DNA from: Psychromonas aquimarina ATCC BAA-1526 | Lineage (GTDB): Bacteria > Pseudomonadota > Gammaproteobacteria > Enterobacterales > Psychromonadaceae | Length of the DNA stretch: 64,000 bases | Direction of reading: 5' to 3' | NCBI RefSeq assembly: GCF_000428725.1 | Contig: NZ_KE386793.1 | Span: 1 to 64,000 of the forward strand | In this document: positions 43,214 to 53,700 of the stretch, piece after piece | How the letters are laid out: the number at the start of each line of letters is the position of its first letter | Position numbering within the stretch: the first letter of the stretch is position 1 | Position numbers and translations under genes: made by a program | Notes under the pieces: generated by a model | Seen by the model: the letters and a program-made list of their open reading frames with translations, nothing else | Database searches by the model: none | Told to the model about the DNA's origin: nothing

Positions 43214-44391
43214 AATTTAATAGTTTAACAGCCGCTGTCACACTGGTTTCTGCAGCAGGTATCTTCACAGCCGCCGCTTATAACGGTATGCAGATCGATG
43301 CAAATAATGAGCTGATTAATCAGCATAGCGCGGAGGTAATGATCAGCTACCCGGATGTTGCGGTTATTAATGTTGTTAAAGATAATTATCAGGCGCAGAT
43401 CAAAGGTTATGGTGAAGTTAAAGCCCGTTATCAGTTAACCTTGAGCAGTGAGGTCAGCGGGAGGGTTGAGTTTCTTGATGAAAAATTCGAGTCGGGCCAG
43501 CTGTTTGACAAAAATGCCGAGTTAGTCAGATTAAATGCAGTCAGTTATCAGCAGGCAGCTGCCGGTGCGCAGGCCGCTGTTGCGGACGCAGAATATGCTT
43601 TTTTAGAAGAACAGCGTCAGAGTCAGCAGGCAAAATTAGAGTGGCGCCGTTCCGGCATGCAAGGCGAACCGGACTCCCCGTTAGTATTACGGGAGCCGCA
43701 GCTGGCGGCGGCGCAGGCAAATCTCAACAATGCTCGGCGTCAGTTAGAGAAAGCGCAGTCAGATCTGGACAAAACCACAATTGCAGCCCCCTTTGATGCG
43801 CTGGTTATTACCCGTGATGTGCAGCCCGGCAGTTATCTGCAGGCCGGTAATACAGTGGCGACTTTATACAGTACAGATCGTGTTGAAATAACAGTCCCTT
43901 TATCTAACCAGCAGTGGCAGAACCTGCCGCCGAGTGCTGCTTTAAAAAATAAAAAGCGGCCGGTTAAGCTGAGTAACAGTGAGGGTACCAGCAGATGGAC
44001 TGGTTATGTTGACCGGGTTGAAAAACACCTGGACAGCAGCAGCCGGCAGCGTTCTCTAGTGGTGGTGGTTGAAAAACCTTTTACGCAGAGCGAGCCTCTT
44101 TTTCCGGGTACATTTGTTGAAGCACAGGTGCAGGGAGATGAGCTCAATGATCTGTGGAAAGTACCGGCTTCGGCGGTTTCACAGAATGGTTATGTCTGGT
44201 ATATCTCAGAAACTAATAATCTGGCTCGTTTTAAAGCAGAAAAAGTATTTGAGCTGGCCGACGCCGCTTATATCAAACCAATGGGGGGGCTGGACAGTGC
44301 GCAGATAGTGGTGCGCCCGCTTAACAGTTATGTGCAGGGCATGACCGTTACTCCTAAAGTGGAAAACGGACTTGAGGAGGCCGCATCATGA
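43210..44391 (+). CDS. RND efflux periplasmic adaptor (membrane-fusion protein)
   Basis: A 393-residue adaptor joining pump and channel. An N-terminal membrane/signal segment (about 5-25) comes first. The lipoyl domain halves are at GYGEVKARYQLTLSSEVSG and ATIAAPFDALVI-like text near 195; between them lies a coiled-coil hairpin (about 110-190). The beta-barrel and membrane-proximal domains follow. Overlaps of 4 bp with both neighbours indicate coupled translation. Substrate not inferable. Confidence 0.9.
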   Translation: MKFNSLTAAVTLVSAAGIFTAAAYNGMQIDANNELINQHSAEVMISYPDVAVINVVKDNYQAQIKGYGEVKARYQLTLSSEVSGRVEFLDEKFESGQLFDKNAELVRLNAVSYQQAAAGAQAAVADAEYAFLEEQRQSQQAKLEWRRSGMQGEPDSPLVLREPQLAAAQANLNNARRQLEKAQSDLDKTTIAAPFDALVITRDVQPGSYLQAGNTVATLYSTDRVEITVPLSNQQWQNLPPSAALKNKKRPVKLSNSEGTSRWTGYVDRVEKHLDSSSRQRSLVVVVEKPFTQSEPLFPGTFVEAQVQGDELNDLWKVPASAVSQNGYVWYISETNNLARFKAEKVFELADAAYIKPMGGLDSAQIVVRPLNSYVQGMTVTPKVENGLEEAAS

Positions 44392-47300
44392 GCAGAGATA
44401 TGCAGAAATCTACCTCGTCAGGCGAACTGGGAAGTAATCCCTTAAGCAGCATCATAGGCTGGTTTGCGCAAAACTCCGTGGCGGCAAACTTGTTATTAGT
44501 CAGTGTAATTATACTCGGGGTAATGTCGTTAAACTCGCTGCGTAAAGAGGCCTTTCCAAGTATGGAACCGGATATGATTACGGTTTCGGTTAATTATGAC
44601 AGTGGTGATGCGAAGCAGGCGGAAGAGGGCATCGCGATTAAAATAGAGGATGCTCTGGAAACGGTTGCCGGTATTAAACGCATTACTTCAACCTCTAATG
44701 TCAGCGGCAGTACAGTTAAAATTGAAAAACAGAGTGATTATTCACTGCAGCTTTTATTAAGTGATGTGAAGACCAAAGTGGATGCTGTTTATAACTTTCC
44801 CGCTGATGCTGAAAAACCGGTTATTGAAAAAGCGCAGCGTCAGGATCATGCTTTATGGGTACAGTTATACGGTAATGCAGACCGGGCGACGCTGCAGAGT
44901 TTAGCCGAAAAGCTTAAGTCGGACCTGCTGGCAAAATCGGGAATACGCGATCTTGCTATTAAAGCAAAAGCCGAGCCGATGATTTCCGTTGAAGTTGATG
45001 AAAGCAAACTGCAGGCTTACGGTTTAACTATCAGTGATATTTCCAGTGTGATTAATGCTGAGTCTTCCACCCCGCTGACGACCAGTTTACGAAACGGCGA
45101 TAAAGTGATGCGCCTTAAAGCTTCCAGACAAGCTTACCGGCTGACTGAATTTTCGCAGATCCCTCTGCTGACTACATCCGCAGGTTCGATAATCAGGCTT
45201 GGTGATGTAGCAGAAGTCGAAGATACCTTTGCCGATGATACTTACCTGCTGTCCCGCTATAACCAGCAGAACGGCATGGCGATTGAAATTGTGATGGATG
45301 AGTATGGCGATGTAACCGAGATCGTCGAACAGGCTGAACAGGTTGTTGACGACTGGCATCAGCGCGGTTTATTACCTGATAATGTCGAACTGGAAACCTG
45401 GTACGACAAAAGTACGCTGATTAAAGAGCGCCTGTCACTGTTGACCAGCAATGCATTAACGGGGATCACTTTTGTTTTTATTGTACTGGCGTTATTTCTT
45501 AATTTTCGCGTTGCTTTCTGGGTAGCGGCCGGTCTGCCTTTTGTCTTTTTCGGCACCCTGTACTTTATGCAGGATACGTTTACCGGATTAACCCTTAATG
45601 AGATGACCACCTTCGGGTTTATTATGGCGCTGGGCATTGTTGTTGACGATGCCGTGGTGGTTGGAGAGAGTATTTACAGCACGCGCAGGTCTTATGGAGA
45701 TACTGTTGAAAATACCATTAAAGGCACCATGAAAGTTGCTGTGCCGACCATTTTTGGTGTGCTGACCACGGTGGCCGCATTTATGGCGTTAACTAATGTA
45801 TCGGGAAATATGGGCAAGATATATGCGCAGTTTGCAGCTATAGTGACTATCTGCCTGCTGTTGTCCGTGGTTGAATCAAAGCTGATTCTGCCTTCTCATT
45901 TGGCGCACCTTAATACCCGTCGCGAAGTGACTGGCGGTTTTGCCGGATTATGGGCGCGCATTCAGCACGGCGCAGACAGCGGTCTGCAGTGGTTTAATCT
46001 TTATATTTACCGCAATATTATTGAATGGGCATTAAAACTGCGTTATGCGGTGATCTTCGTTTTTGTTGCGCTGTTTATGTTAGTGGCGGCAATGCCGATG
46101 ACCGGAGCTGTGCGAGTGGCTTTTTTCCCGGATCTGCCGGGAGATGTGATTACGGCTGAATTATCCATGCAGGATGATGCCAGTTTTGGTCAGACGAACA
46201 GCAACTTACTGTGGTTAGAAAAAACAGCGCGTCAGGCGGATCAGATTCTAAGTGAAAAAAACGGTGCGCAGGAAAGTCAGATCAGCAGTCTGCAGGTGAT
46301 TGCTGAGCAGGACAGCAGCGGTACACTGCTGGTCGAAATAACCTCGGACTCAGTGTATTCGTCAACGGATTTTGCCGCTCAGTGGAAGTCGCTTTCCGGC
46401 TCTCCGGAGGGTGTTAAAAAACTCAAGTTCCTCTCGAGTATGCATATGGTGGATAATTTCAAAGTTGAAATAAAAGCCTGGGATGAAACAACGGTTAAAG
46501 CCGCCGCTGAGCAGTTTAAAGCTGTTTTACAAAAAACAGCGGGTGTCAGCGCTATTGACGATAATCTTAATCCCGGACAGCCGCAGATTCGATTTACCGT
46601 GACAGAGCAGGGACGAAGTTTAGGTATGGATACAGCAACCCTGTCACGGCAGCTGCTGCAGTCCTTCGGTGGTGAAATTGTGCAGCGTTATCAGCGAGAT
46701 AAAGACGAAGTTAAAGTACGGGTGCGTTATCCGGATAATCAGCGTCAGACCATGGCAGATATTGTGCAGGCCCGGGTACGAACTGCAGAGGGAACCTTAG
46801 TACCGCTGACTGCCGTTGCCGATATCAGCACCGAGTATCAGCAGGATGAAATTACCCGTATCGATAACCAGCGCTCTGTGTATATAACGGCAGCCGTGGA
46901 TAAATCAGTTCTTTCATCAAATGAATTAGTCACTAATCTGCGCCAGGGGCTGCTGCCTGATCTGCTTAAACAGTTTCCAGATATCAGTGTGCATTTTGCC
47001 GGGGAAGCCGAGCAGCAGGAAGAAACCACTGAGTCGATGCTTAATATGTTTATTGCCGCCTTGCTGATTATTTATGTGCTGCTTGCTGTGCCCCTGAAAT
47101 CCTATGTGCAGCCGGTGCTTATTATGCTGGCTATCCCTTTTGGTATTGTCGGGGCGATATTAGGCCACTGGCTGAATGATTTAACCATCAGTATTTTATC
47201 CTTAAACGGTATACTGGCATTAAGCGGGGTGGTTGTGAACGACAGTCTGCTGCTGGTTTCACGTTTTAATGAACTGATTAAAAAACCGGGTATAGAGGTG

Positions 47301-47597
47301 CGGGAAGCGGTTATTGAAGCCTGCTCCGGGCGTCTGCGTGCAGTACTGCTGACTTCCATTACAACTTTTGCCGGTCTTGCTCCTTTATTGAGTGAAACAT
47401 CAATGCAGGCGCAGTTTTTAATTCCGGCTGCCGCATCGTTAGCCTACGGCATTTTATTTGCGACCCTGATTACTTTAATATTAATACCGGCATTATTATT
47501 TATTCACTGTGAAATCAAAAGATTACTGGCTAAACTCGTTACTAAAAACAGGCTGACTCATGGAGAATTAATGCATGTTAAAACTGATATTGGTTGA
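44388..47597 (+). CDS. RND-family efflux pump, inner-membrane transporter
   Basis: Proton-driven transporter of 1069 residues with the AcrB-like duplicated layout: TM1 near 30, a large periplasmic loop, TM2-6 (about 340-500), TM7 near 560, a second loop, TM8-12 (about 875-1045). The proton-relay pair is visible in TM4 as GIVVDDAVVVGES. It belongs to the acriflavin-type (HAE) class; the substrate could be drugs, dyes or detergents. The stop codon lies 20 bp inside the next gene, so pump and response regulator are translationally linked. Confidence 0.92.
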   Translation: MSRDMQKSTSSGELGSNPLSSIIGWFAQNSVAANLLLVSVIILGVMSLNSLRKEAFPSMEPDMITVSVNYDSGDAKQAEEGIAIKIEDALETVAGIKRITSTSNVSGSTVKIEKQSDYSLQLLLSDVKTKVDAVYNFPADAEKPVIEKAQRQDHALWVQLYGNADRATLQSLAEKLKSDLLAKSGIRDLAIKAKAEPMISVEVDESKLQAYGLTISDISSVINAESSTPLTTSLRNGDKVMRLKASRQAYRLTEFSQIPLLTTSAGSIIRLGDVAEVEDTFADDTYLLSRYNQQNGMAIEIVMDEYGDVTEIVEQAEQVVDDWHQRGLLPDNVELETWYDKSTLIKERLSLLTSNALTGITFVFIVLALFLNFRVAFWVAAGLPFVFFGTLYFMQDTFTGLTLNEMTTFGFIMALGIVVDDAVVVGESIYSTRRSYGDTVENTIKGTMKVAVPTIFGVLTTVAAFMALTNVSGNMGKIYAQFAAIVTICLLLSVVESKLILPSHLAHLNTRREVTGGFAGLWARIQHGADSGLQWFNLYIYRNIIEWALKLRYAVIFVFVALFMLVAAMPMTGAVRVAFFPDLPGDVITAELSMQDDASFGQTNSNLLWLEKTARQADQILSEKNGAQESQISSLQVIAEQDSSGTLLVEITSDSVYSSTDFAAQWKSLSGSPEGVKKLKFLSSMHMVDNFKVEIKAWDETTVKAAAEQFKAVLQKTAGVSAIDDNLNPGQPQIRFTVTEQGRSLGMDTATLSRQLLQSFGGEIVQRYQRDKDEVKVRVRYPDNQRQTMADIVQARVRTAEGTLVPLTAVADISTEYQQDEITRIDNQRSVYITAAVDKSVLSSNELVTNLRQGLLPDLLKQFPDISVHFAGEAEQQEETTESMLNMFIAALLIIYVLLAVPLKSYVQPVLIMLAIPFGIVGAILGHWLNDLTISILSLNGILALSGVVVNDSLLLVSRFNELIKKPGIEVREAVIEACSGRLRAVLLTSITTFAGLAPLLSETSMQAQFLIPAAASLAYGILFATLITLILIPALLFIHCEIKRLLAKLVTKNRLTHGELMHVKTDIG

Positions 47598-48246
47598 AGA
47601 TGATATTGATTTAGCGGCGGCAGTTATTGACTACCTGGAGTTAGAGGGGATGCAGTGCGATTACGTCTCAAACGGACCGGCCGGGTTAAACCTGATTGAA
47701 CAGAATGACTATCAGGCTGTTATTCTGGATCTCAATCTTCCGAAAATGGATGGTTTAACTATCTGCACTAAGATGCGCGAGCAGGGTATTGATACTCCTG
47801 TATTAATGCTGACGGCAAGAGACAGCCTGCAGGATAAGCTCCTGGGGTTTGATGCCGGTGCGGATGACTATCTGGTTAAACCCTTTGCCATGGCGGAATT
47901 AATTGCGCGTATTCAGGTACTGGCCGGGCGCCGCAGCGGGCAGGTCCGCTGTTTGAAAGTAGCGGATCTGCAGTTAAATTTACAGGAAAAGCTGGCATAT
48001 CGAAATGAATGCCCGCTTAAGCTGTCACCAACCGCATTGAAAATATTAGAAGTGTTAATGCGTGAAAGTCCGAATCCGGTATCGCGCGAGAAACTGATGC
48101 ACAATGTCTGGGGAGACCAGCCGCCGGACAGCAACAGTTTAAAAGTACATATTTATAATCTGCGTAAACAGCTTGATGGTAATGCCAATAAAGTTTTACT
48201 GCATACAGTCAGCGGTTATGGTTTTGCGCTGAAAGCAGACAAGTAA
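47575..48246 (+). CDS. OmpR/PhoB-family response regulator
   Basis: DNA-binding output of a two-component system. The 223 residues have a receiver domain with acidic pocket E8-D9-D10, phospho-acceptor D52 in VILDLNLP, T80 and K102, and a C-terminal winged helix (about 125-220). It overlaps the pump gene by 23 bp; GGAGA precedes the ATG. It likely controls the efflux operon through the 11-bp direct repeat at 41782-41801. Confidence 0.92.
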   Translation: MLKLILVEDDIDLAAAVIDYLELEGMQCDYVSNGPAGLNLIEQNDYQAVILDLNLPKMDGLTICTKMREQGIDTPVLMLTARDSLQDKLLGFDAGADDYLVKPFAMAELIARIQVLAGRRSGQVRCLKVADLQLNLQEKLAYRNECPLKLSPTALKILEVLMRESPNPVSREKLMHNVWGDQPPDSNSLKVHIYNLRKQLDGNANKVLLHTVSGYGFALKADK

Positions 48247-48294
48247 ATGAATTATGATCCTAAGCGGCATTTATTACCTTAAAATGAGAGTGTT

Positions 48295-49584
48295 ATGAAA
48301 ATAAGACCAAGTTTGCGATTATACTTTCTGGCGGGGCTGCTGGCTTTAGGCTCTGTGATGGCACTGACATTTTCTGCATTAACTGTCCGCTACTATATTG
48401 AGGGCATGGATTCAGGACTGAGCGGTACTATGCTTCAGGTTGCAGATGCAGACGGTGTCAGCGATGGTTTTCCAGTTACACTACTGGATTTTCAAATAGC
48501 CAGCCGCTGGCAGGACGTGCCTGCACAGATTAAAAAGCGTTTCCCGTCTCCTCCGAATGAACTTTATCAGCTAAAAAAATCGGCCGGTGAGCACAACTTA
48601 TTATCCGTGCCTGAGGAGGTTTATTTTGTTTCCTTAATGGCTAATAAGCTCGGGGAAAAACGTTATGTTACAAAAATACTAACGGATCTTCCGCCGCCTC
48701 ATCTGCAGGAGCAGAGCTTTTCTCATTTTTTCTGGATTTTTGTTTTTGCTGTTAGTGCTATTTTGATATTTGCGCTTTTGGTTTTATTAATTATGCGTTT
48801 TGTCGCGGCTCCCGTTGAGGCGCTACGCGACTGGGCAAAGTCATTAAATGAAAGTAATTTAAAAAATACACCACCGGATTTCAATTATAACGAACTTAAT
48901 TCTTTAGCCGCTATTATTCGTAACAGTTTAAATTCCGTGCATCACAGCCTGGAACGGGAACACCAGTTTCTGCGTAATGCCAGCCATGAACTGCGCACGC
49001 CGATTGCGGTGATCCGCAGCAATGTCGAGCTGCTGCAGAAGCTTAATGAAAAACAGCCTGCCAGTGACAAGCATCAGCAGGTTACCGCACGGATTGAGCG
49101 TGCGGCTTTAAATATGGGGGATCTGACCGAAACCCTGTTATGGTTAAGCCGTGACAATGAACCGCCGCCGGCACTGCAGACTGTAAAGCTTAATCAGCTT
49201 ATCGAGCAGCTTGTTGAAGAGTTAAACTATCTGCTCCAGGGAAAAGCGGTTACTGTGAAACTTGACTGTGCCGAATTTTCAACTGAACTGCCGCTGACAG
49301 TCTGCCGTATCGTTCTTGCTAATCTTATTCGTAATGCTTTTCAGCATACACAGAACGGCAGTGTTTCTATTCAGCAGATCCGGGAGCTGGTGTGTATCCG
49401 TAATATTAATGCCGATTGCAGTGCTGCCGACAGCGCCAATGATGAACTGGGTTTCGGCCTTGGTCTTAAACTGACAGATAAACTGGTAAAGCAGTTTCAC
49501 TGGCCTTATCACAGACAGATTGAAACGTCCGGACATTTAGTTGAAGTGCTTTTCTCAGCTGCGCAGAATAAGCAGAAAAAATAA
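48295..49584 (+). CDS. Sensor histidine kinase of the efflux operon
   Basis: Membrane kinase of 429 residues. TM1 (about 8-30), a periplasmic sensor domain (about 32-140) and TM2 (about 147-170) are followed by a HisKA dimerisation domain with phospho-acceptor H231 in NASHELRTP and an HATPase domain with N-box NLIRNAFQHTQNG and G2-box GFGLGLKLTDKL. The G1 box is short and lacks a clear DxGxG, as in some short sensor kinases. It follows its regulator by 48 bp. Confidence 0.9.
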   Translation: MKIRPSLRLYFLAGLLALGSVMALTFSALTVRYYIEGMDSGLSGTMLQVADADGVSDGFPVTLLDFQIASRWQDVPAQIKKRFPSPPNELYQLKKSAGEHNLLSVPEEVYFVSLMANKLGEKRYVTKILTDLPPPHLQEQSFSHFFWIFVFAVSAILIFALLVLLIMRFVAAPVEALRDWAKSLNESNLKNTPPDFNYNELNSLAAIIRNSLNSVHHSLEREHQFLRNASHELRTPIAVIRSNVELLQKLNEKQPASDKHQQVTARIERAALNMGDLTETLLWLSRDNEPPPALQTVKLNQLIEQLVEELNYLLQGKAVTVKLDCAEFSTELPLTVCRIVLANLIRNAFQHTQNGSVSIQQIRELVCIRNINADCSAADSANDELGFGLGLKLTDKLVKQFHWPYHRQIETSGHLVEVLFSAAQNKQKK

Positions 49585-49594
49585 GCGCAGCTGC

Positions 49595-50155
49595 TTAACC
49601 GCCGGGTTTCAGCAGCAGCGGCAGTAAATCCTTAATCACTTTTTTATATGACTCTGTATCAGAGTGCATAACGTTACCCCAGTTAAGATAACAGTTAAAA
49701 ACCTGCGCTCGGCTTTCCTGTTCGCTCTCTGCAAAACCGGCATCAGCAAAAGCCTGTTTAATAACGGTCATGCGCCGTATGTGCATCTTGTCAAATACGA
49801 TAAGAGCGGCTGGATCATGGCTGGCCCAGGCGCGGATCGCCAGCTCATATTTTGCCAGCTGCTGTCCGATAACGGTATCTGCTATCGCCTGCAGGCGCTG
49901 TCCTGCGTCGAGTATCAACAGTTCTGGACTGTCCGTCAGCACCGTATTGAACTCTGAAACCCAGTATTCAAGCATATGATCGAGCAGATCCTGGCGGTCT
50001 TTAAAATGCCAGTAAAAACTGGTTTTAGCGACACCCACCGTACGTGATAAGCTGCCGATGGTGAGTTTGTCCACTCCTTGAGTTGTCAGCATCTTCAACC
50101 CTGCTTCAAGCCATTCATTTTTTGAAAAACGCTGCCGTTTAATTTTATTGGTCAT
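49595..50155 (-). CDS. TetR-family transcriptional regulator
   Basis: A 186-residue repressor-type protein. The N-terminal helix-turn-helix (about 10-55) shows LTIGSLSRTVGVAKTSFYWHFKDRQDLL; the C-terminal helical part (about 60-180) binds an unknown ligand. It is convergent with the kinase gene (10 bp apart) and divergent from the cytochrome-FKBP-dehalogenase operon. Two palindromes in the divergent region are likely operators, so it probably represses itself and/or that operon in response to a substrate, perhaps an organohalide; that ligand is inference. Confidence 0.9.
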   Translation of the reverse strand: MTNKIKRQRFSKNEWLEAGLKMLTTQGVDKLTIGSLSRTVGVAKTSFYWHFKDRQDLLDHMLEYWVSEFNTVLTDSPELLILDAGQRLQAIADTVIGQQLAKYELAIRAWASHDPAALIVFDKMHIRRMTVIKQAFADAGFAESEQESRAQVFNCYLNWGNVMHSDTESYKKVIKDLLPLLLKPGG

Positions 50156-50244
50156 GCTGTTCCTAATTTCACCTGTTTATTTTTGATCTAAATCAATAGG
50201 TTGTTTGAAATATAAGCAAAATGCTATATTTTATCACCCTGCAT

Positions 50245-50301
50245 ATGTACTAGCTAGTACATGCGGTTTAGTATAGCTCTAATATATGTACCGCGCGGTA
50301 C
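50245..50301. promoter_or_regulatory. Pair of GTAC-N6-GTAC palindromes, candidate TetR operators
   Basis: ATGTACTAGCTAGTACAT (50245-50262) is a perfect 18-bp palindrome and GTACCGCGCGGTAC (50288-50301) a perfect 14-bp one. Their centres are 41 bp apart, close to four helical turns. Both lie in the divergent region between the TetR gene and the cytochrome gene, where a TetR protein normally binds. Confidence 0.75.
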
Positions 50302-50439
50302 TTGGTTCGTCTGGTAAGCGAATAAATCTATTATCTCTAATTAGCGGACGCTTGTTAAGCCTGCAGTCCTATATCTATGAAGATATATATGAAACTGAAC
50401 GTCTTGCCTCTTGAAGCATGTAGTCAGGGAATTTTTACA

Positions 50440-50952
50440 ATGAAAAAGACAATAATAACTTTTGCACTGCTCAGCAGCGCTTTGTGCAGTGCCGGTGCTG
50501 CGAATAAAATGCCGGATCCGTATTCACAGCCGCAGCCGGCTGCCGCGGCCCGTCAGGGAGTTCATCGTTTAATGGGCGCAACCCTGATGGATGCAGGGGC
50601 TATTGCCTCCGGGCAGAAAAAATGGAACGGATTTACTCTGCTTAATCGTGTTGATGCACTGGAGCAGATCTCGCAGATGTATAACGATTTCTTTTTTGTG
50701 CCCGGCTCATTTGCAGACAGTAATACGCGTGATGATCTGCTGCAGCGAAAAACTGAATTTCAGGAACTTTCTGCCGATTTGAAACTGGCCGCTTTCAGCC
50801 TGCGCATGGCTGCTCGTAATCATGAATCTGATGTAGCAATGAAAGCCTTCGGCACAACCATTCAAGCCTGTAATGCCTGTCACCGTAGTTTTATGAAACC
50901 CGGTACAGAAGTAATTTTACCTTTGCCGCCGACGCCGTCCGGGCACAAATAA
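50440..50952 (+). CDS. Class II c-type cytochrome (cytochrome c'/c-556-like)
   Basis: A 170-residue exported monoheme protein. The signal peptide (MKKTIITFALLSSALCSAGA) is followed by a helical domain with the single heme motif CNACH near the C-terminus, as in four-helix cytochrome c'/c-556 proteins, and a Pro-rich tail. I use ATG 50440 because the signal peptide starts there and CAGGGA precedes; a longer frame from 50377 has an implausible N-terminus. As first gene of the dehalogenase operon it may carry electrons to the enzyme in the periplasm, or bind a small ligand as c' proteins do. Both roles are inference. Confidence 0.8.
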   Translation: MKKTIITFALLSSALCSAGAANKMPDPYSQPQPAAAARQGVHRLMGATLMDAGAIASGQKKWNGFTLLNRVDALEQISQMYNDFFFVPGSFADSNTRDDLLQRKTEFQELSADLKLAAFSLRMAARNHESDVAMKAFGTTIQACNACHRSFMKPGTEVILPLPPTPSGHK

Positions 50953-50968
50953 TACGAGGTTAAATAAT

Positions 50969-51595
50969 ATGACAGAAATAAGACCCGCACTTGAGTCAGA
51001 TGAACACAAAGTCAGTTACAGCATGGGCTGGCAGTTTGGTTACCATCTGCTCAGCCATAACTTTGACGGCCTGGATCTGGATGTAACCATTGCCGGTATG
51101 CTGGACTGCTTCACTGCAAAAAAAGCACCGATTACCGACCAGCAGGTTGAAAGTGCATTTAAAACCATCGTCGGCCGTGTAGAAGCGCAGCGCCAGAAAG
51201 AAGCCGCTAGACAGGCTGGGCGCAGTCAGGCCTTTATGTCAGAAAATGCCCTGAAACCCGGAATTATCATGACCGACAGCGGCCTGCAGTACAAGGTGGT
51301 TGAAATGGGCAAGGGGCGCCGAGCCGGTGTGGTAGATAACGTCATTGTTCATTATCACGGCATGCTGATCAACGGTGATGTTTTCGACAGTTCTATTGAA
51401 CGCGGCGAAGCAGCTGAATTTCCAATTCAGGGAGTGATTCCGGGATGGACCGAAGTACTGCAGCTGATGCCTCAGGGCTCTAAATGGAGGGTATATGTAC
51501 CTGCAGAACTGGCTTATGGTCAAGCGGGCAAAGCACCGCAGATTCCAGGAAATGCCGCCTTGATCTTTGATCTCGAATTAATTGAAGTTGTGTGA
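50969..51595 (+). CDS. FKBP-type peptidyl-prolyl isomerase (FklB/Mip-like, no signal peptide)
   Basis: A 208-residue folding helper. The N-terminal helical dimerisation domain (about 1-80, YSMGWQFGYHLL) resembles FklB/Mip proteins. The FKBP domain (about 95-207) shows VHYHGMLINGDVFDSS, VIPGWTEVLQLMPQGSKW and ELAYGQAG. With no signal it should be cytosolic. Dehalogenases carry corrinoid and two iron-sulfur clusters and must fold before Tat export; other organohalide respirers use a trigger-factor-like isomerase (PceT) for this. By position, 16 bp after the cytochrome and 38 bp before the dehalogenase, I infer an analogous chaperone role. Confidence 0.88.
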   Translation: MTEIRPALESDEHKVSYSMGWQFGYHLLSHNFDGLDLDVTIAGMLDCFTAKKAPITDQQVESAFKTIVGRVEAQRQKEAARQAGRSQAFMSENALKPGIIMTDSGLQYKVVEMGKGRRAGVVDNVIVHYHGMLINGDVFDSSIERGEAAEFPIQGVIPGWTEVLQLMPQGSKWRVYVPAELAYGQAGKAPQIPGNAALIFDLELIEVV

Positions 51596-51633
51596 TTCAG
51601 GCGTGCAGATTGTAAAAGAAGGAATGAAAAATC

Positions 51634-53100
51634 ATGAAAAATCAAGTTGAAAACCAGCAGGAATTAGAAGCTGATGATGAACTGCCGAATATGTCACGCC
51701 GCAGTTTTTTTAAGAGAACTGCGGCGGCCGGCGGCGCCGCCATTTTAGGCGGGGGCGCAGTATTAGGGGCTTCTAAAGCTTCTCTGCAGGGCTCGCTGAA
51801 TACTCCGGGAATTATTGTTGACGAAAATTTCAAAGCGAAAGATCAGCGCGATGTGATGTTATGTCATGCAACCAGTTATCACCTGTCGCAGGTTAGAAAC
51901 CCTGAGCGCGGTGAGCAGTATGCGCGTCTGCATAAAAAGGACTTTAACTTTAACCGGGCGCTGCAGACATTTGAAAACCGCGACCATTTTGATAATAACA
52001 AACCTGGTTACGGTCAGGCGGACCGTGCCATCGGGCATGCCGCCTGGTACCCTCTGGTGGTGGCTAAATCCCGTGCGGCGGCTTTTACCCAGCCGAATAC
52101 GCCGATGCACAGCTGGAGCCAGGCGGATGTGCATGAAGAGCAGTTTGACTGGGGAAGCGGTAAACGTGCTGCTGATATGATCCGCTCGACGGGGCGTTTG
52201 TTTGGTGCGGTACGTGTGGGGATCGCGAAGTTTGACAAGCGTTTTGTCTATGATCCGCTTTATGATGTTGTTGAAGAGCGTACTTTGTCATGGGAAAAAG
52301 ACTTTCCCTTTAAACCAAAATCCGTGATTGTGATTGCCACACCTATGGACTACGACAATGTTGCTACTGCACCGTCCTGGACTGCCGAAGGTGCGACCGG
52401 TAACGGTTATAGTGATATGAGCAAAATTGCCTGTCAGATAGCTAAGTTTATCCGCGGCTGCGGCTACAATGCCGTGGGGGCTGGTAACGATCTGGCCAGC
52501 TCGGTGGCCTATGCAATTCAGGCTGGTCTTGGTGAAGGCGGGCGTAATGGTTCTGTGATTGTTCCGGGCATGGGGCCGCGTGTTCGTCTTTGTAAGGTAT
52601 TCACTAATATCGATTTCGACGATGCTTATGATCAACCGCGGACCTGGGGGATCACCGAGTTTTGTAAAAGCTGTAAGAAATGTGCCGATGCCTGTCCTTC
52701 CGGTGCAATCAGTCAGGATGATGATACCAGTTTCGCACCAACCTATGAGTTCAGCGATGAGCCCGATTACACCTGGAATAATCATATAGGTATTAAGAAG
52801 TTTTATTCAGATGCGAAGAAGTGTTTTAACTTCTGGATGGATAATGATACTTCCTGCCTGAACTGTGTTGCCAGCTGTACCTTTAACGAACCGGATTTCT
52901 GGCATCATTGGATGATTATGGCTGTTAACCCTTATATGCCCAAATTTGTGCATAGTCTGATGGCGGAAGGGCACCCGGCATTTGGTTACGGTGGTCAAAG
53001 CCGCAATCCGATTCCAGCTAAGGTCGAGAAGTTCTGGGTATCCGGTGAAGATATGCGTACTAATACTTCAATGAAAAATAATATCGGCACAGCCGGATAA
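51634..53100 (+). CDS. rdhA: Tat-exported reductive dehalogenase catalytic subunit (RdhA-like)
   Basis: Corrinoid and iron-sulfur enzyme that removes halogens from organic compounds with electrons from the respiratory chain. The 488-residue precursor starts with a Tat signal: SRRSFFK (twin Arg 22-23) and a Gly/Ala-rich hydrophobic stretch. The core contains RGCGYNAVGAGNDLASSVAYA and GLGEGGRNGSVIVPGMGPRVRLCKVFTN (split here as two adjoining blocks), the typical RdhA lead-in. Two cluster motifs follow: C344-x2-C347-x2-C350-x3-C354-P and C397-x10-C408-x2-C411-x3-C415. The related QueG lacks a Tat signal. The membrane anchor gene follows 15 bp later. The substrate is unknown. Confidence 0.9.
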   Translation: MKNQVENQQELEADDELPNMSRRSFFKRTAAAGGAAILGGGAVLGASKASLQGSLNTPGIIVDENFKAKDQRDVMLCHATSYHLSQVRNPERGEQYARLHKKDFNFNRALQTFENRDHFDNNKPGYGQADRAIGHAAWYPLVVAKSRAAAFTQPNTPMHSWSQADVHEEQFDWGSGKRAADMIRSTGRLFGAVRVGIAKFDKRFVYDPLYDVVEERTLSWEKDFPFKPKSVIVIATPMDYDNVATAPSWTAEGATGNGYSDMSKIACQIAKFIRGCGYNAVGAGNDLASSVAYAIQAGLGEGGRNGSVIVPGMGPRVRLCKVFTNIDFDDAYDQPRTWGITEFCKSCKKCADACPSGAISQDDDTSFAPTYEFSDEPDYTWNNHIGIKKFYSDAKKCFNFWMDNDTSCLNCVASCTFNEPDFWHHWMIMAVNPYMPKFVHSLMAEGHPAFGYGGQSRNPIPAKVEKFWVSGEDMRTNTSMKNNIGTAG

Positions 53101-53115
53101 CTGAGGAGAAAGGTA

Positions 53116-53427
53116 ATGGAAGCATTACAATGGTTTTCACTGGGAATTATCAGTATGTTAGCAATTAACGTGATGGTTTATGTGCATCGGGTTATTGATC
53201 TTAAATGGTATACACTGCCGCTGCTTCTGGGCGGGGTGGTGGATATTTTAGTTGGTGTCGCCTGGTGCTGGTCTTCATTTCTAGAAGGTTATCCGCAGTC
53301 TGGTGCTATGGGCTTATCGTTGTTCAGCGGATCCGGCTTAGTCGTGATCATTCTGACCTGGCGTCATCTGGTTGCACCGGGGCTTAATATACCCATGATA
53401 CTTCAAGATGCAAAGTCAGCAAGGTAA
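53116..53427 (+). CDS. rdhB: Small membrane protein, likely RdhB-type anchor
   Basis: A 103-residue protein with three predicted membrane helices (about 4-24, 35-57 and 66-88) and a strong ribosome site (GAGGAGAAAGG). RdhB proteins are short three-helix anchors that hold RdhA at the outer face of the cytoplasmic membrane. Sequence conservation in that family is low, so the call rests on size, topology and position immediately after rdhA. Confidence 0.75.
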   Translation: MEALQWFSLGIISMLAINVMVYVHRVIDLKWYTLPLLLGGVVDILVGVAWCWSSFLEGYPQSGAMGLSLFSGSGLVVIILTWRHLVAPGLNIPMILQDAKSAR

Positions 53428-53458
53428 ATTGTGCCGAGATGTTAGGCATAAAATTGAA

Positions 53459-53650
53459 GTATAGTCATTCTACATAGAGATTTTATAACAACGCAGATTG
53501 GCGTAAGTTGCCTTGCCCTACGGGGCGTTAGCTCGAAAACCAGCCCTGCGTTGCAACAATCGAAAAGTGAATAACAATTACCTCATATTGCGCCTTGCTC
53601 TGGTATCCGAGCTAACGCCTGACAAAGCATCTTGAGGTAACATGGGTATA
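53459..53650. repeat. Dispersed ~190-bp repeat element of marine gammaproteobacteria type
   Basis: A non-coding block from about GTATAGTCATTC to CATGGGTATA. It contains inverted GGCGTTAGCTCG (53524-53535) and CGAGCTAACGCC (53608-53619), plus ATTACCTCA and TGAGGTAA arms. I recall very similar sequences (CGTTAGCTCGAAAACCAGC, TGGTATCCGAGCTAACGC) as interspersed chromosomal repeats in Shewanella- and Pseudoalteromonas-like genomes; that comparison is from memory. Limits are approximate. Confidence 0.6.
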
Positions 53651-53674
53651 AATCTCAATCTATTTAATCTTATC

Positions 53675-53700
53675 AGGCCGGTTAACTACCGGCCTTTTCT
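53675..53700 (+). terminator. Rho-independent terminator after the dehalogenase operon
   Basis: AGGCCGG (53675-53681) pairs with CCGGCCT (53689-53695), extended by GT/AC next to the loop, and is followed by TTTTCT. It lies beyond the dispersed repeat and ends the rdh transcript. Confidence 0.82.

What the first reader, a model, noticed from the sequence alone, without database searches (positions are those of the whole stretch)
49595..53700. Compact candidate organohalide-respiration operon with its own regulator, cytochrome and chaperone
Seen: TetR gene, two palindromes, class II cytochrome c, FKBP isomerase, Tat-signal RdhA with two complete cluster motifs, and a three-helix anchor, with gaps of 15-40 bp and a shared terminator. 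Family knowledge: RdhA needs corrinoid, folding help before Tat export, and a membrane electron donor. Inference: the FKBP replaces the trigger-factor-like PceT, and the cytochrome is the periplasmic electron donor, an arrangement I do not know from Dehalococcoides or Desulfitobacterium. Marine algae make many brominated compounds, a plausible substrate.
Basis: partly seen in the sequence, partly recalled or inferred. Interest (0 to 1): 0.8.

Follow-up and report, generated by a model that had tools for sequence, protein, structure and literature searches.

The report
Dehalogenase operon within a corrinoid-uptake regulon
A marine Psychromonas carries a small gene set that probably strips halogens from organic compounds, and one DNA signal appears to tie it to a distant electron-transfer gene and to genes that import the vitamin-B12-type cofactor the enzyme needs.

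Summary
Window 49595-53427 holds a divergent TetR gene, a class II cytochrome c, an FKBP isomerase, a respiratory-type RdhA and an RdhB. The same five genes stand in the same order in all 7 orthologous loci seen (two Psychromonas, five Shewanella). None of 22 other stretches, holding 26 other rdhA genes, has a match to the cytochrome, FKBP or TetR. RdhA groups away from catabolic enzymes and QueG.

The main new result is the operator. The two palindromes are ATGTAC-N6-GTAC(A/T)T and persist in all 7 loci. The window's genome has only two further places. One precedes its only strong RdhC homologue, fused to a CysJ-like reductase. The other precedes a cobalamin riboswitch and a corrinoid-type uptake operon with CbiZ. 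P. ossibalaenae repeats this with a different RdhC gene. No CbiC was found in either Psychromonas, so corrinoid is probably imported. This looks like a three-unit regulon, not a self-contained operon. The cytochrome as donor and the FKBP as PceT substitute remain inference; a His at the cytochrome's distal heme position fits electron transfer. Regulator binding, sign of control and substrate are untested.

The parts
49595..50155 (-). TetR-family regulator gene, divergent from the operon; proposed to bind the two palindromes
   Evidence: PF00440 36.8 bits; 73-86% identical orthologue in the same place in the other 6 loci
50245..50262 (.). operator 1, ATGTACTAGCTAGTACAT, perfect palindrome
   Evidence: core present in the other 6 loci with changed inner letters; 0 hits of the reversed control pattern in this genome
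50286..50303 (.). operator 2, ATGTACCGCGCGGTACTT, 41 bp downstream of operator 1
   Evidence: same as operator 1
50440..50952 (+). class II cytochrome c with signal-like N terminus, one CxxCH, and His at the distal heme position (H63 in numbering from 50377)
   Evidence: PF01322 59.1 bits; start from 7-sequence alignment; H63 aligns with Phe or Leu of solved cytochromes c' and is invariant in 7 of 7
50969..51595 (+). FKBP-type prolyl isomerase, FklB-like, no signal peptide seen by eye, so probably cytoplasmic
   Evidence: PF00254 and PF01346; PRK11570 187.5 bits, under its cut-off of 198; one of 5 FKBP matches in the genome, next nearest 43% identical
51634..53100 (+). RdhA, reductive dehalogenase catalytic subunit with Tat-like motif and two 4Fe-4S motifs
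   Evidence: TIGR02486 185 bits; 8q4h E 9.5e-56; tree; model matches 8q4h at E 4.1e-29; Y259 and R318 invariant in 25 rows
53116..53427 (+). RdhB, presumed three-helix membrane anchor
   Evidence: position, hydrophobicity read from the sequence, 71-98% identity to RdhB of the other 6 loci; no family match
53675..53695 (+). intrinsic-terminator-like stem-loop after rdhB
   Evidence: 8 pairs, 6 G-C, T-rich tail; 10 such patterns found in the stretch against 4.6 expected

Best explanation
The genes encode a periplasmic, membrane-anchored organohalide reductase (RdhA-RdhB) run as part of a TetR-controlled regulon of at least three transcription units. Shown by sequence: the gene set, its conservation in two genera, the shared operator motif, and the motif's presence before an RdhC gene and before a corrinoid-type uptake operon. 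Inferred: the neighbouring TetR binds ATGTAC-N6-GTAC(A/T)T and lets go (or activates) when an organohalide or related signal is present. The cell then makes RdhA-RdhB, the cytochrome and the FKBP (window), RdhC (contig C19), and a BtuB-like receptor, ABC transporter, CbiZ, ExbBD and TonB (contig C37, also under a cobalamin riboswitch). Because the ring-synthesis gene cbiC was not found, imported and remodelled corrinoid probably supplies the RdhA cofactor. The FKBP, presumably cytoplasmic, helps RdhA fold before Tat export. Electrons reach RdhA from menaquinol at the RdhA/RdhB interface, or through RdhC, with the cytochrome as an extra periplasmic carrier. My estimates: respiratory-type dehalogenase 0.9; regulon over all three units 0.75; FKBP as RdhA folding factor 0.55; cytochrome as electron carrier to or near RdhA 0.5.
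For: Same five genes in 7 of 7 orthologous loci, with different flanks in the two genera; six-frame search finds the cytochrome, FKBP and TetR in 7 of 7 of these and in 0 of 22 other stretches with 26 rdhA genes. Of 24 Psychromonas genomes, 5 match the cytochrome at all: the two with this RdhA at 92-100% identity, three others at 22-27%. Operator scan of 7 genomes: 22 places, 19 of them at the rdh intergenic region, rdhC or the corrinoid operon; all 11 places that match on both strands are among those 19. Reversed control pattern: 0 hits in 6 of 7 genomes, one per strand in the seventh. RdhC: the C19 gene is 47% identical to an operon RdhC, has both CX3CP motifs, and a site about 90 bp upstream; in P. 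ossibalaenae a different RdhC beside tetR has two sites upstream of its likely start. RdhC lies within the stretch in 16 of 22 other loci but in only 1 of the 7 set loci, so the operator restores the missing partner. Corrinoid operon: RF00174 57.5 and 57.0 bits; CbiZ 175 bits. CbiC: 0 of 2 Psychromonas, 4 of 5 Shewanella. RdhA tree: set-bearing clade of 7, SH-aLRT 100, inside a 20-row clade (100) with the presumed S. sediminis PceA. Cytochrome His63 invariant.
Against: No expression, binding or enzyme data. On count alone the two extra hits are unremarkable: shuffled sequence gives 0.42 symmetric matches per Mb, about 2 per genome of this size; the weight lies in their positions. In the corrinoid operon the site sits 27 bp upstream of a perfect sigma-70-type promoter, not over it, and that promoter's -10 box overlaps the first bases of the riboswitch match, so promoter and sign of control are unclear. 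In Shewanella no site lies outside the rdh operon (one stray in G878), so the wider regulon is shown only for Psychromonas. The BtuB-like receptor (345 of 600 bits), the permease (best model BtuC, 281 of 461) and the ATPase (best model corrinoid ATPase, 261 of 537) are under equivalog cut-offs, and the binding protein fits BtuF poorly (42 of 234). In Sulfurospirillum a tetR gene lies in the dehalogenase region, but the authors saw no indication that it regulates it (PMC7755780, passages). The menaquinone pocket of DhPceA is only partly kept: H425 and Y452 align with its H495 and Y520, but K489 and R499 do not (alignment, numbering worked out by me), and RdhB has one Glu where PceB has the EXE motif.
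Confidence: 0.7

Rival explanations
1. Electrons come only from menaquinol through RdhA-RdhB (the PceA2B2 mechanism); the cytochrome is a side component such as an NO or redox sensor or scavenger that protects the cobalt and iron-sulfur centres, and RdhC is needed for maturation or activation.
For: The solved PceA2B2 complex binds menaquinone at the A/B interface, and its authors question PceC as the link (PMC10624902 passages); the nearest solved relatives of the cytochrome are cytochromes c', gas binders by general knowledge; RdhAB loci without this cytochrome are common.
Against: The distal residue is an invariant His, not the Leu or Phe of the aligned cytochromes c'; only part of the menaquinone pocket is conserved.
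Confidence: 0.35
2. The operator belongs to a corrinoid-demand regulator: the TetR senses a corrinoid or its precursor, and the rdh operon is one client among B12-dependent systems.
For: A site precedes a riboswitch-led corrinoid operon, and CbiC was not found in the genome.
Against: All 11 symmetric sites in 7 genomes lie at rdh operons, rdhC or this corrinoid operon; tetR lies beside the rdh operon in 7 of 7 loci; in Shewanella, 4 of 5 with CbiC, the site stays at the rdh operon apart from one stray.
Confidence: 0.15
3. RdhA is a detoxifying or co-metabolic reductase rather than a respiratory one; in this genome NADPH drives it through the RdhC-CysJ fusion, without energy conservation.
For: The C19 RdhC is fused to a CysJ-like diflavin reductase (TIGR01931 603 bits, under its cut-off of 668); TetR control is typical of detoxification genes (general knowledge).
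Against: In P. ossibalaenae the RdhC with the operator is a plain 418-aa protein without that domain; RdhA groups with respiratory-type enzymes.
Confidence: 0.25
4. The association is accidental: a laterally moved cassette with unrelated neighbours, and operator-like sites elsewhere by chance.
For: 80% RdhA identity between Psychromonas and Shewanella with different flanks suggests lateral transfer; about 2 symmetric sites per genome are expected from shuffled sequence.
Against: Order and operators kept in 7 of 7 loci, and sites before two different RdhC genes; reversed control nearly empty.
Confidence: 0.08

Closest known systems
pceABCT of Desulfitobacterium hafniense TCE1 / Dehalobacter restrictus
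   Same: RdhA with Tat-type export, three-helix RdhB, membrane flavoprotein RdhC, dedicated folding factor (PMC10624902 passages)
   Different: Folding factor here is an FKBP, not PceT (trigger-factor-like by recall); a class II cytochrome is added; RdhC is encoded elsewhere; TetR control proposed
Shewanella sediminis HAW-EB3 rdhA genes, including pceA
   Same: One of five rdhA genes of G857 is the direct orthologue with the full set (L064; RdhA 80%). G857 is taken for this strain from its length, 5,517,674 bp, and recall
   Different: The gene taken for its PceA (L073; match to Ssed_3769 is recall from coordinates) has RdhC-CysJ behind it but no cytochrome or FKBP, and is 42% identical. The 2013 paper on this strain could not be read
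RdhABC of other marine gammaproteobacteria
   Same: Nearest RdhA and RdhB relatives outside the clade: six rows at 51-58% RdhA identity
   Different: RdhC behind rdhB in 5 of these 6 loci (L028 cut by the contig end; none found in L077); no cytochrome, FKBP or TetR match in any of the six. PMC5928378 (passages) names Vibrio, Photobacterium and Ferrimonas as rich in RdhC
Sulfurospirillum organohalide region
   Same: Dehalogenase, putative quinol dehydrogenase and cobamide genes in one regulated region; a tetR gene present (PMC7755780, passages)
   Different: Controlled by a two-component system; norcobamide is made de novo, not imported
Dehalobacter/Dehalococcoides corrinoid salvage with CbiZ and riboswitches
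   Same: CbiZ, corrinoid transporters and a cobalamin riboswitch in an organohalide respirer (PMC4285132, passages); an adenosylcobinamide amidohydrolase gene near rdhA on pDhc6
   Different: The passages seen describe riboswitch control only; I saw no shared operator with rdh genes

Membership tests
Respiratory reductive dehalogenase (RdhA) | TIGR02486 score over curated cut-off | tested here: met
   185 over 160.35; PF13486 is under its cut-off, 20.0 of 24.3
Respiratory reductive dehalogenase (RdhA) | two 4Fe-4S cluster motifs | tested here: met
Respiratory reductive dehalogenase (RdhA) | active-site Tyr and Arg (Y246 and R305 of SmPceA by recall; Y337 and R396 of DhPceA) | tested here: met
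   Y259 and R318 align and are invariant in 25 rows
Respiratory reductive dehalogenase (RdhA) | Tat signal and cognate RdhB | tested here: inconclusive
   SRRSFFKR motif and adjacent RdhB present; Tat profiles under cut-off; RdhB has no family match
Respiratory reductive dehalogenase (RdhA) | groups with respiratory, not catabolic or QueG, sequences | tested here: met
   (36 rows, SH-aLRT, quick search); structure search ranks 8q4h, then SmPceA, then NpRdhA, then QueG
Respiratory reductive dehalogenase (RdhA) | growth-coupled dehalogenation | not testable with these tools
   needs culture
Cytochrome c' (five-coordinate, gas-binding) | class II fold with C-terminal CxxCH | tested here: met
   PF01322; Foldseek best hits are cytochromes c', on a model of modest confidence, pLDDT 63.7
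Cytochrome c' (five-coordinate, gas-binding) | hydrophobic distal residue leaving heme five-coordinate (recall) | tested here: not met
   His63 at the position of Leu16/Phe, invariant in 7 of 7. So: class II cytochrome, not filed as cytochrome c'
FklB (FKBP22) | FKBP_N plus FKBP_C, no signal peptide, PRK11570 cut-off | tested here: inconclusive
   both domains met; 187.5 of 198 bits; signal peptide judged by eye
RdhC / PceC-like (contig C19 gene) | FMN_bind, Fer4_5, two CX3CP motifs | tested here: met
   FMN_bind 51.7 and Fer4_5 35.8 bits, over cut-off; CX3CP at residues 274 and 365; 47% identical to an operon RdhC. Extra CysJ-like part is not an RdhC feature
BtuB corrinoid receptor (contig C37 gene) | TIGR01779 cut-off | tested here: not met
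   345.5 of 599.7. The works-like claim rests on best hit, riboswitch and CbiZ in the same operon

The most novel reading that the evidence does not exclude
A TetR-family organohalide sensor runs a whole organohalide-respiration regulon: terminal reductase, a folding factor, two electron-delivery routes (an atypical His-ligated class II cytochrome, and an NADPH-linked RdhC-CysJ fusion that pushes cytoplasmic electrons across the membrane), and imported corrinoid placed under double control by the sensor and a B12 riboswitch. This would be a further kind of regulator for dehalogenase genes and a new electron entry.
Probability: 0.25. Interest if true: 0.8.

Novelty: new variant of a known kind. 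Interest (0 to 1): 0.62.

Why it matters
How electrons reach RdhA, and what switches organohalide respiration on, are debated. A 2025 paper lists three characterised regulator types (CRP/FNR, two-component, MarR; passage of PMC12090745). Here a candidate TetR, its operator and its targets are predicted to the base, in bacteria with named, cultured relatives. The operator also seems to join dehalogenation to cofactor import in species that probably cannot make the corrin ring, which gives a direct route to the substrate (the TetR ligand).

Tried and rejected
Rejected: RdhA as a catabolic or QueG-like enzyme. Rejected: RdhC simply absent; it is missing beside the operon but was found on another contig and tied to the regulon by the operator. 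Dropped: a second promoter (TTAACA/AATATT) next to the corrinoid operator, found in the window's genome but not in P. ossibalaenae. Dropped: my earlier idea that all six inner letters of the corrinoid-operon site differ between the two species. In one orientation the 12 outer letters agree and 3 of 6 inner letters differ, so conservation there is modest support; my note says otherwise, and also gives the site-riboswitch gap as 49 bp (it is 48), and is wrong. Little use: PF13486 search of the genome; order of G734 (1 of 5, itself).

Limits. Genome searches were samples of the order (394 genomes) and class (369); the Shewanella family search covered 152 held genomes. The 22 other stretches are those I fetched, not all hits, and some end at contig ends. 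G266 was not in the 7-genome operator scan; its site comes from the local scan of 29 stretches, where shuffles predict about 1.4 one-mismatch hits, so it could be chance. Of the three stray sites only C7 of G207 was looked at (it lies inside an ORF). The tree has 36 rows: 30 of the 33 gammaproteobacterial RdhAs I had (second rdhA of L071 and of L075, and L078, were left out) plus 6 references; it is a quick tree with long branches, and the sister of the set-bearing clade is unresolved (support 60). 'Catabolic' and 'BhbA' labels of the references are recall. The cytochrome model is of modest confidence and without heme, so His ligation is read from alignment alone. My first neighbourhood scripts kept only the longest ORFs; the six-frame check replaced them for the counts.

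Literature: 10 searches of an open-licence library, of which only part was listed in some. The TetR search is weak: 'tetr' also matches tetrachloroethene, and 20 of 96 papers were listed. None of the listed papers that I saw joins FKBP with an rdh operon (3 papers, one seen in passages, two as listing) or describes a Psychromonas rdh operon (4 papers, listing only). The most relevant paper, on S. sediminis, is not held, so an earlier description of this cluster cannot be excluded.
Full report
What is there. The cytochrome probably starts at 50440, not 50377. RdhA is 488 residues and passes the NCBIfam reductive-dehalogenase cut-off but not the Pfam one. Its best solved relatives are the D. hafniense menaquinol:organohalide oxidoreductase subunit A (E 9.5e-56), S. 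multivorans PceA (8.2e-36), catabolic NpRdhA (1.1e-13) and QueG (1.1e-6), in that order; the fold search of the model gives the same order.

Is the set more than chance? Orthologous RdhA (79% identity or more) was found in 2 Psychromonas and in 5 of 152 genomes of the family that holds Shewanella (genus names of handles are inferred). In all 7 loci the order is tetR (divergent), cytochrome, FKBP, rdhA, rdhB. Identities of the five Shewanella sets to the window's proteins are 79-80% (RdhA), 75-77% (FKBP), 60-64% (cytochrome), 71-74% (RdhB) and 73% (TetR). The flanking genes differ between the two genera. I fetched 22 further stretches with 26 other rdhA genes (11, 15). A six-frame search at E 1e-3 finds the cytochrome, FKBP and TetR in 7 of 7 set loci and in 0 of these 22. 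Some of the 22 do have unrelated multi-heme CxxCH proteins nearby (L031, L076, L078). One genome, G857, is a single contig of 5,517,674 bases with five rdhA matches, by recall S. sediminis HAW-EB3.

Family tree. With 36 rows and QueG as outgroup, the seven set-bearing RdhAs form one clade (SH-aLRT 100) inside a 13-row clade with RdhABC enzymes (98) and a 20-row gammaproteobacterial clade (100) that includes the enzyme I take for S. sediminis PceA. The Comamonas and Nitratireductor enzymes, the four Tat-less ones and QueG lie outside.

The operators. The two palindromes are the same motif, ATGTAC-N6-GTAC(A/T)T, 41-43 bp apart, in 7 of 7 loci (six, the seventh). I scanned 7 genomes for it. It occurs at 22 places; 19 are of three kinds: the rdh intergenic region (14), upstream of rdhC (3), and a corrinoid operon (2). 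The other three are on C7 and C13 of G207 and C38 of G878; only the first was looked at and lies inside an ORF. All 11 places that match on both strands are among the 19. The reversed pattern gave no hit in 6 of 7 genomes and one per strand in the seventh. Against this, simple shuffling predicts 0.42 symmetric matches per Mb, about two per genome, so positions carry the argument, not the count.

RdhC. RdhC lies in the stretch in 16 of the 22 other loci, but in only 1 of the 7 set loci, that of P. ossibalaenae. The window's genome has one strong RdhC homologue, on contig C19 (47%, E 2e-119; the next matches are at 2e-4 and 8e-4). It is a 945-aa fusion of FMN_bind and Fer4_5, with two CX3CP motifs, to a CysJ-like diflavin reductase. 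The operator lies about 90 bp upstream of its start. In P. ossibalaenae the RdhC next to tetR is a different protein without the reductase. Its longest ORF has 466 codons and would include both operators; homology begins near the internal Met at L027 15271, which gives 418 residues and puts the operators 55 and 94 bp upstream. Two different RdhC genes in different places with the same operator is the strongest single argument for a functional regulon. A third Psychromonas, G266, has the motif in its GTACTT form about 100 bp upstream of an RdhABC-type rdhA, a hit that could be chance.

Corrinoid. The remaining site, on contig C37, lies 48 bp before an Rfam cobalamin riboswitch (57.5 bits over 31.5). 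An operon follows: a TonB-dependent receptor whose best model is the B12 receptor, a periplasmic binding protein, a permease and an ATPase whose best models are BtuC and a corrinoid ATPase (all under equivalog cut-offs), then CbiZ (175 bits over 27), ExbB, ExbD and TonB proteins over Pfam cut-offs. P. ossibalaenae has the same arrangement with the same 48 bp. Both have a perfect sigma-70-type promoter 27 bp after the site, whose -10 box overlaps the start of the riboswitch match. The two intergenic regions are 88% identical; the 50-column block holding the site is the least conserved (33 of 50), yet the 12 outer letters of the site agree. CbiC, a ring-synthesis enzyme, was not found in either Psychromonas and was found in 4 of 5 Shewanella; the family rang in 7 of 14 control genomes. 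So the species that probably must import corrinoid are the ones whose uptake operon carries the site. One missing gene is indirect evidence of auxotrophy.

The cytochrome. It is a class II cytochrome whose closest solved relatives are cytochromes c' of Shewanella and Alcaligenes. Its His63 aligns to Phe of the Shewanella proteins and to Leu16 of the Alcaligenes protein; PDB titles name L16 variants. By general knowledge that residue covers the distal heme face. His63 is invariant in 7 of 7 orthologues. This points to a six-coordinate electron carrier rather than a gas binder, but no heme was modelled.

The FKBP. It has FKBP_N and FKBP_C domains and no signal peptide that I can see, close to FklB. 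It is one of five FKBP matches in the genome, the nearest other being 43% identical, so it looks like a dedicated paralogue. A role in folding RdhA before export is reasonable by analogy with PceT (PMC10624902 passage), but untested.

How it probably works. An organohalide or related signal changes TetR binding; the rdh operon, rdhC and corrinoid uptake are expressed together; corrinoid is imported and remodelled by CbiZ; RdhA is folded with FKBP help and exported; RdhA-RdhB takes electrons from menaquinol, from RdhC, or through the cytochrome. Only the genes, operators and their positions are shown. Whether TetR represses or activates is open.

Comparison with what is known. The enzyme is an ordinary member of the RdhA family. 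The added cytochrome and FKBP, the detached RdhC and the operator shared with corrinoid uptake make a variant that I did not find described. That rests on ten searches of an open-licence library and on passages of ten papers; no paper was read whole. The main S. sediminis paper was not readable.

Changes made on checking. One search was added; it confirmed the co-occurrence count and corrected the size of the P. ossibalaenae RdhC.

Noticed in passing
L068 6619-9456 (contig C19 of the window's genome); L073 4365-7274: RdhC-like membrane flavoprotein fused to a CysJ-like diflavin reductase (945 and 969 aa). In the presumed S. sediminis genome it lies beside the presumed PceA; in the window's genome it stands without an rdhA.
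   Followed up: partly
L028 2338-2355 (G266, a third Psychromonas): The operator motif in its GTACTT form about 100 bp upstream of an rdhA of the RdhABC type without cytochrome or FKBP; the regulator may serve several rdh operons in the genus, or this is chance.
   Followed up: partly
L127 9149-9221 and L128 5832-5904: A perfect consensus sigma-70 promoter (TTGACA-16-TATAAT) in both Psychromonas 27 bp after the operator, its -10 box overlapping the start of the cobalamin riboswitch match.
   Followed up: partly
L031 5132-8385: Upstream of a distant rdhA: a 569-aa protein with a Tat-like start, then a 163-aa protein with four CxxCH motifs; possibly another electron-delivery arrangement for RdhA. 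No family search was run.
   Followed up: no
L032, L033, L034, L069, L070, L071: A second RdhA type in marine gammaproteobacteria with a 366-369 aa protein upstream of rdhA (TPR-like by my reading only) and an AraC-like gene (my reading) in L034, L069, L070 and L071.
   Followed up: no
L070 2951-5585: Genes that by eye look like cobalt-transport components (CbiM-like start) lie close to a pair of rdhA genes in the presumed S. sediminis genome.
   Followed up: no
window 44388-49584: Next to tetR in the window: by eye an RND-type efflux gene and a response regulator/histidine kinase pair, where P. ossibalaenae has rdhC beside tetR.
   Followed up: no
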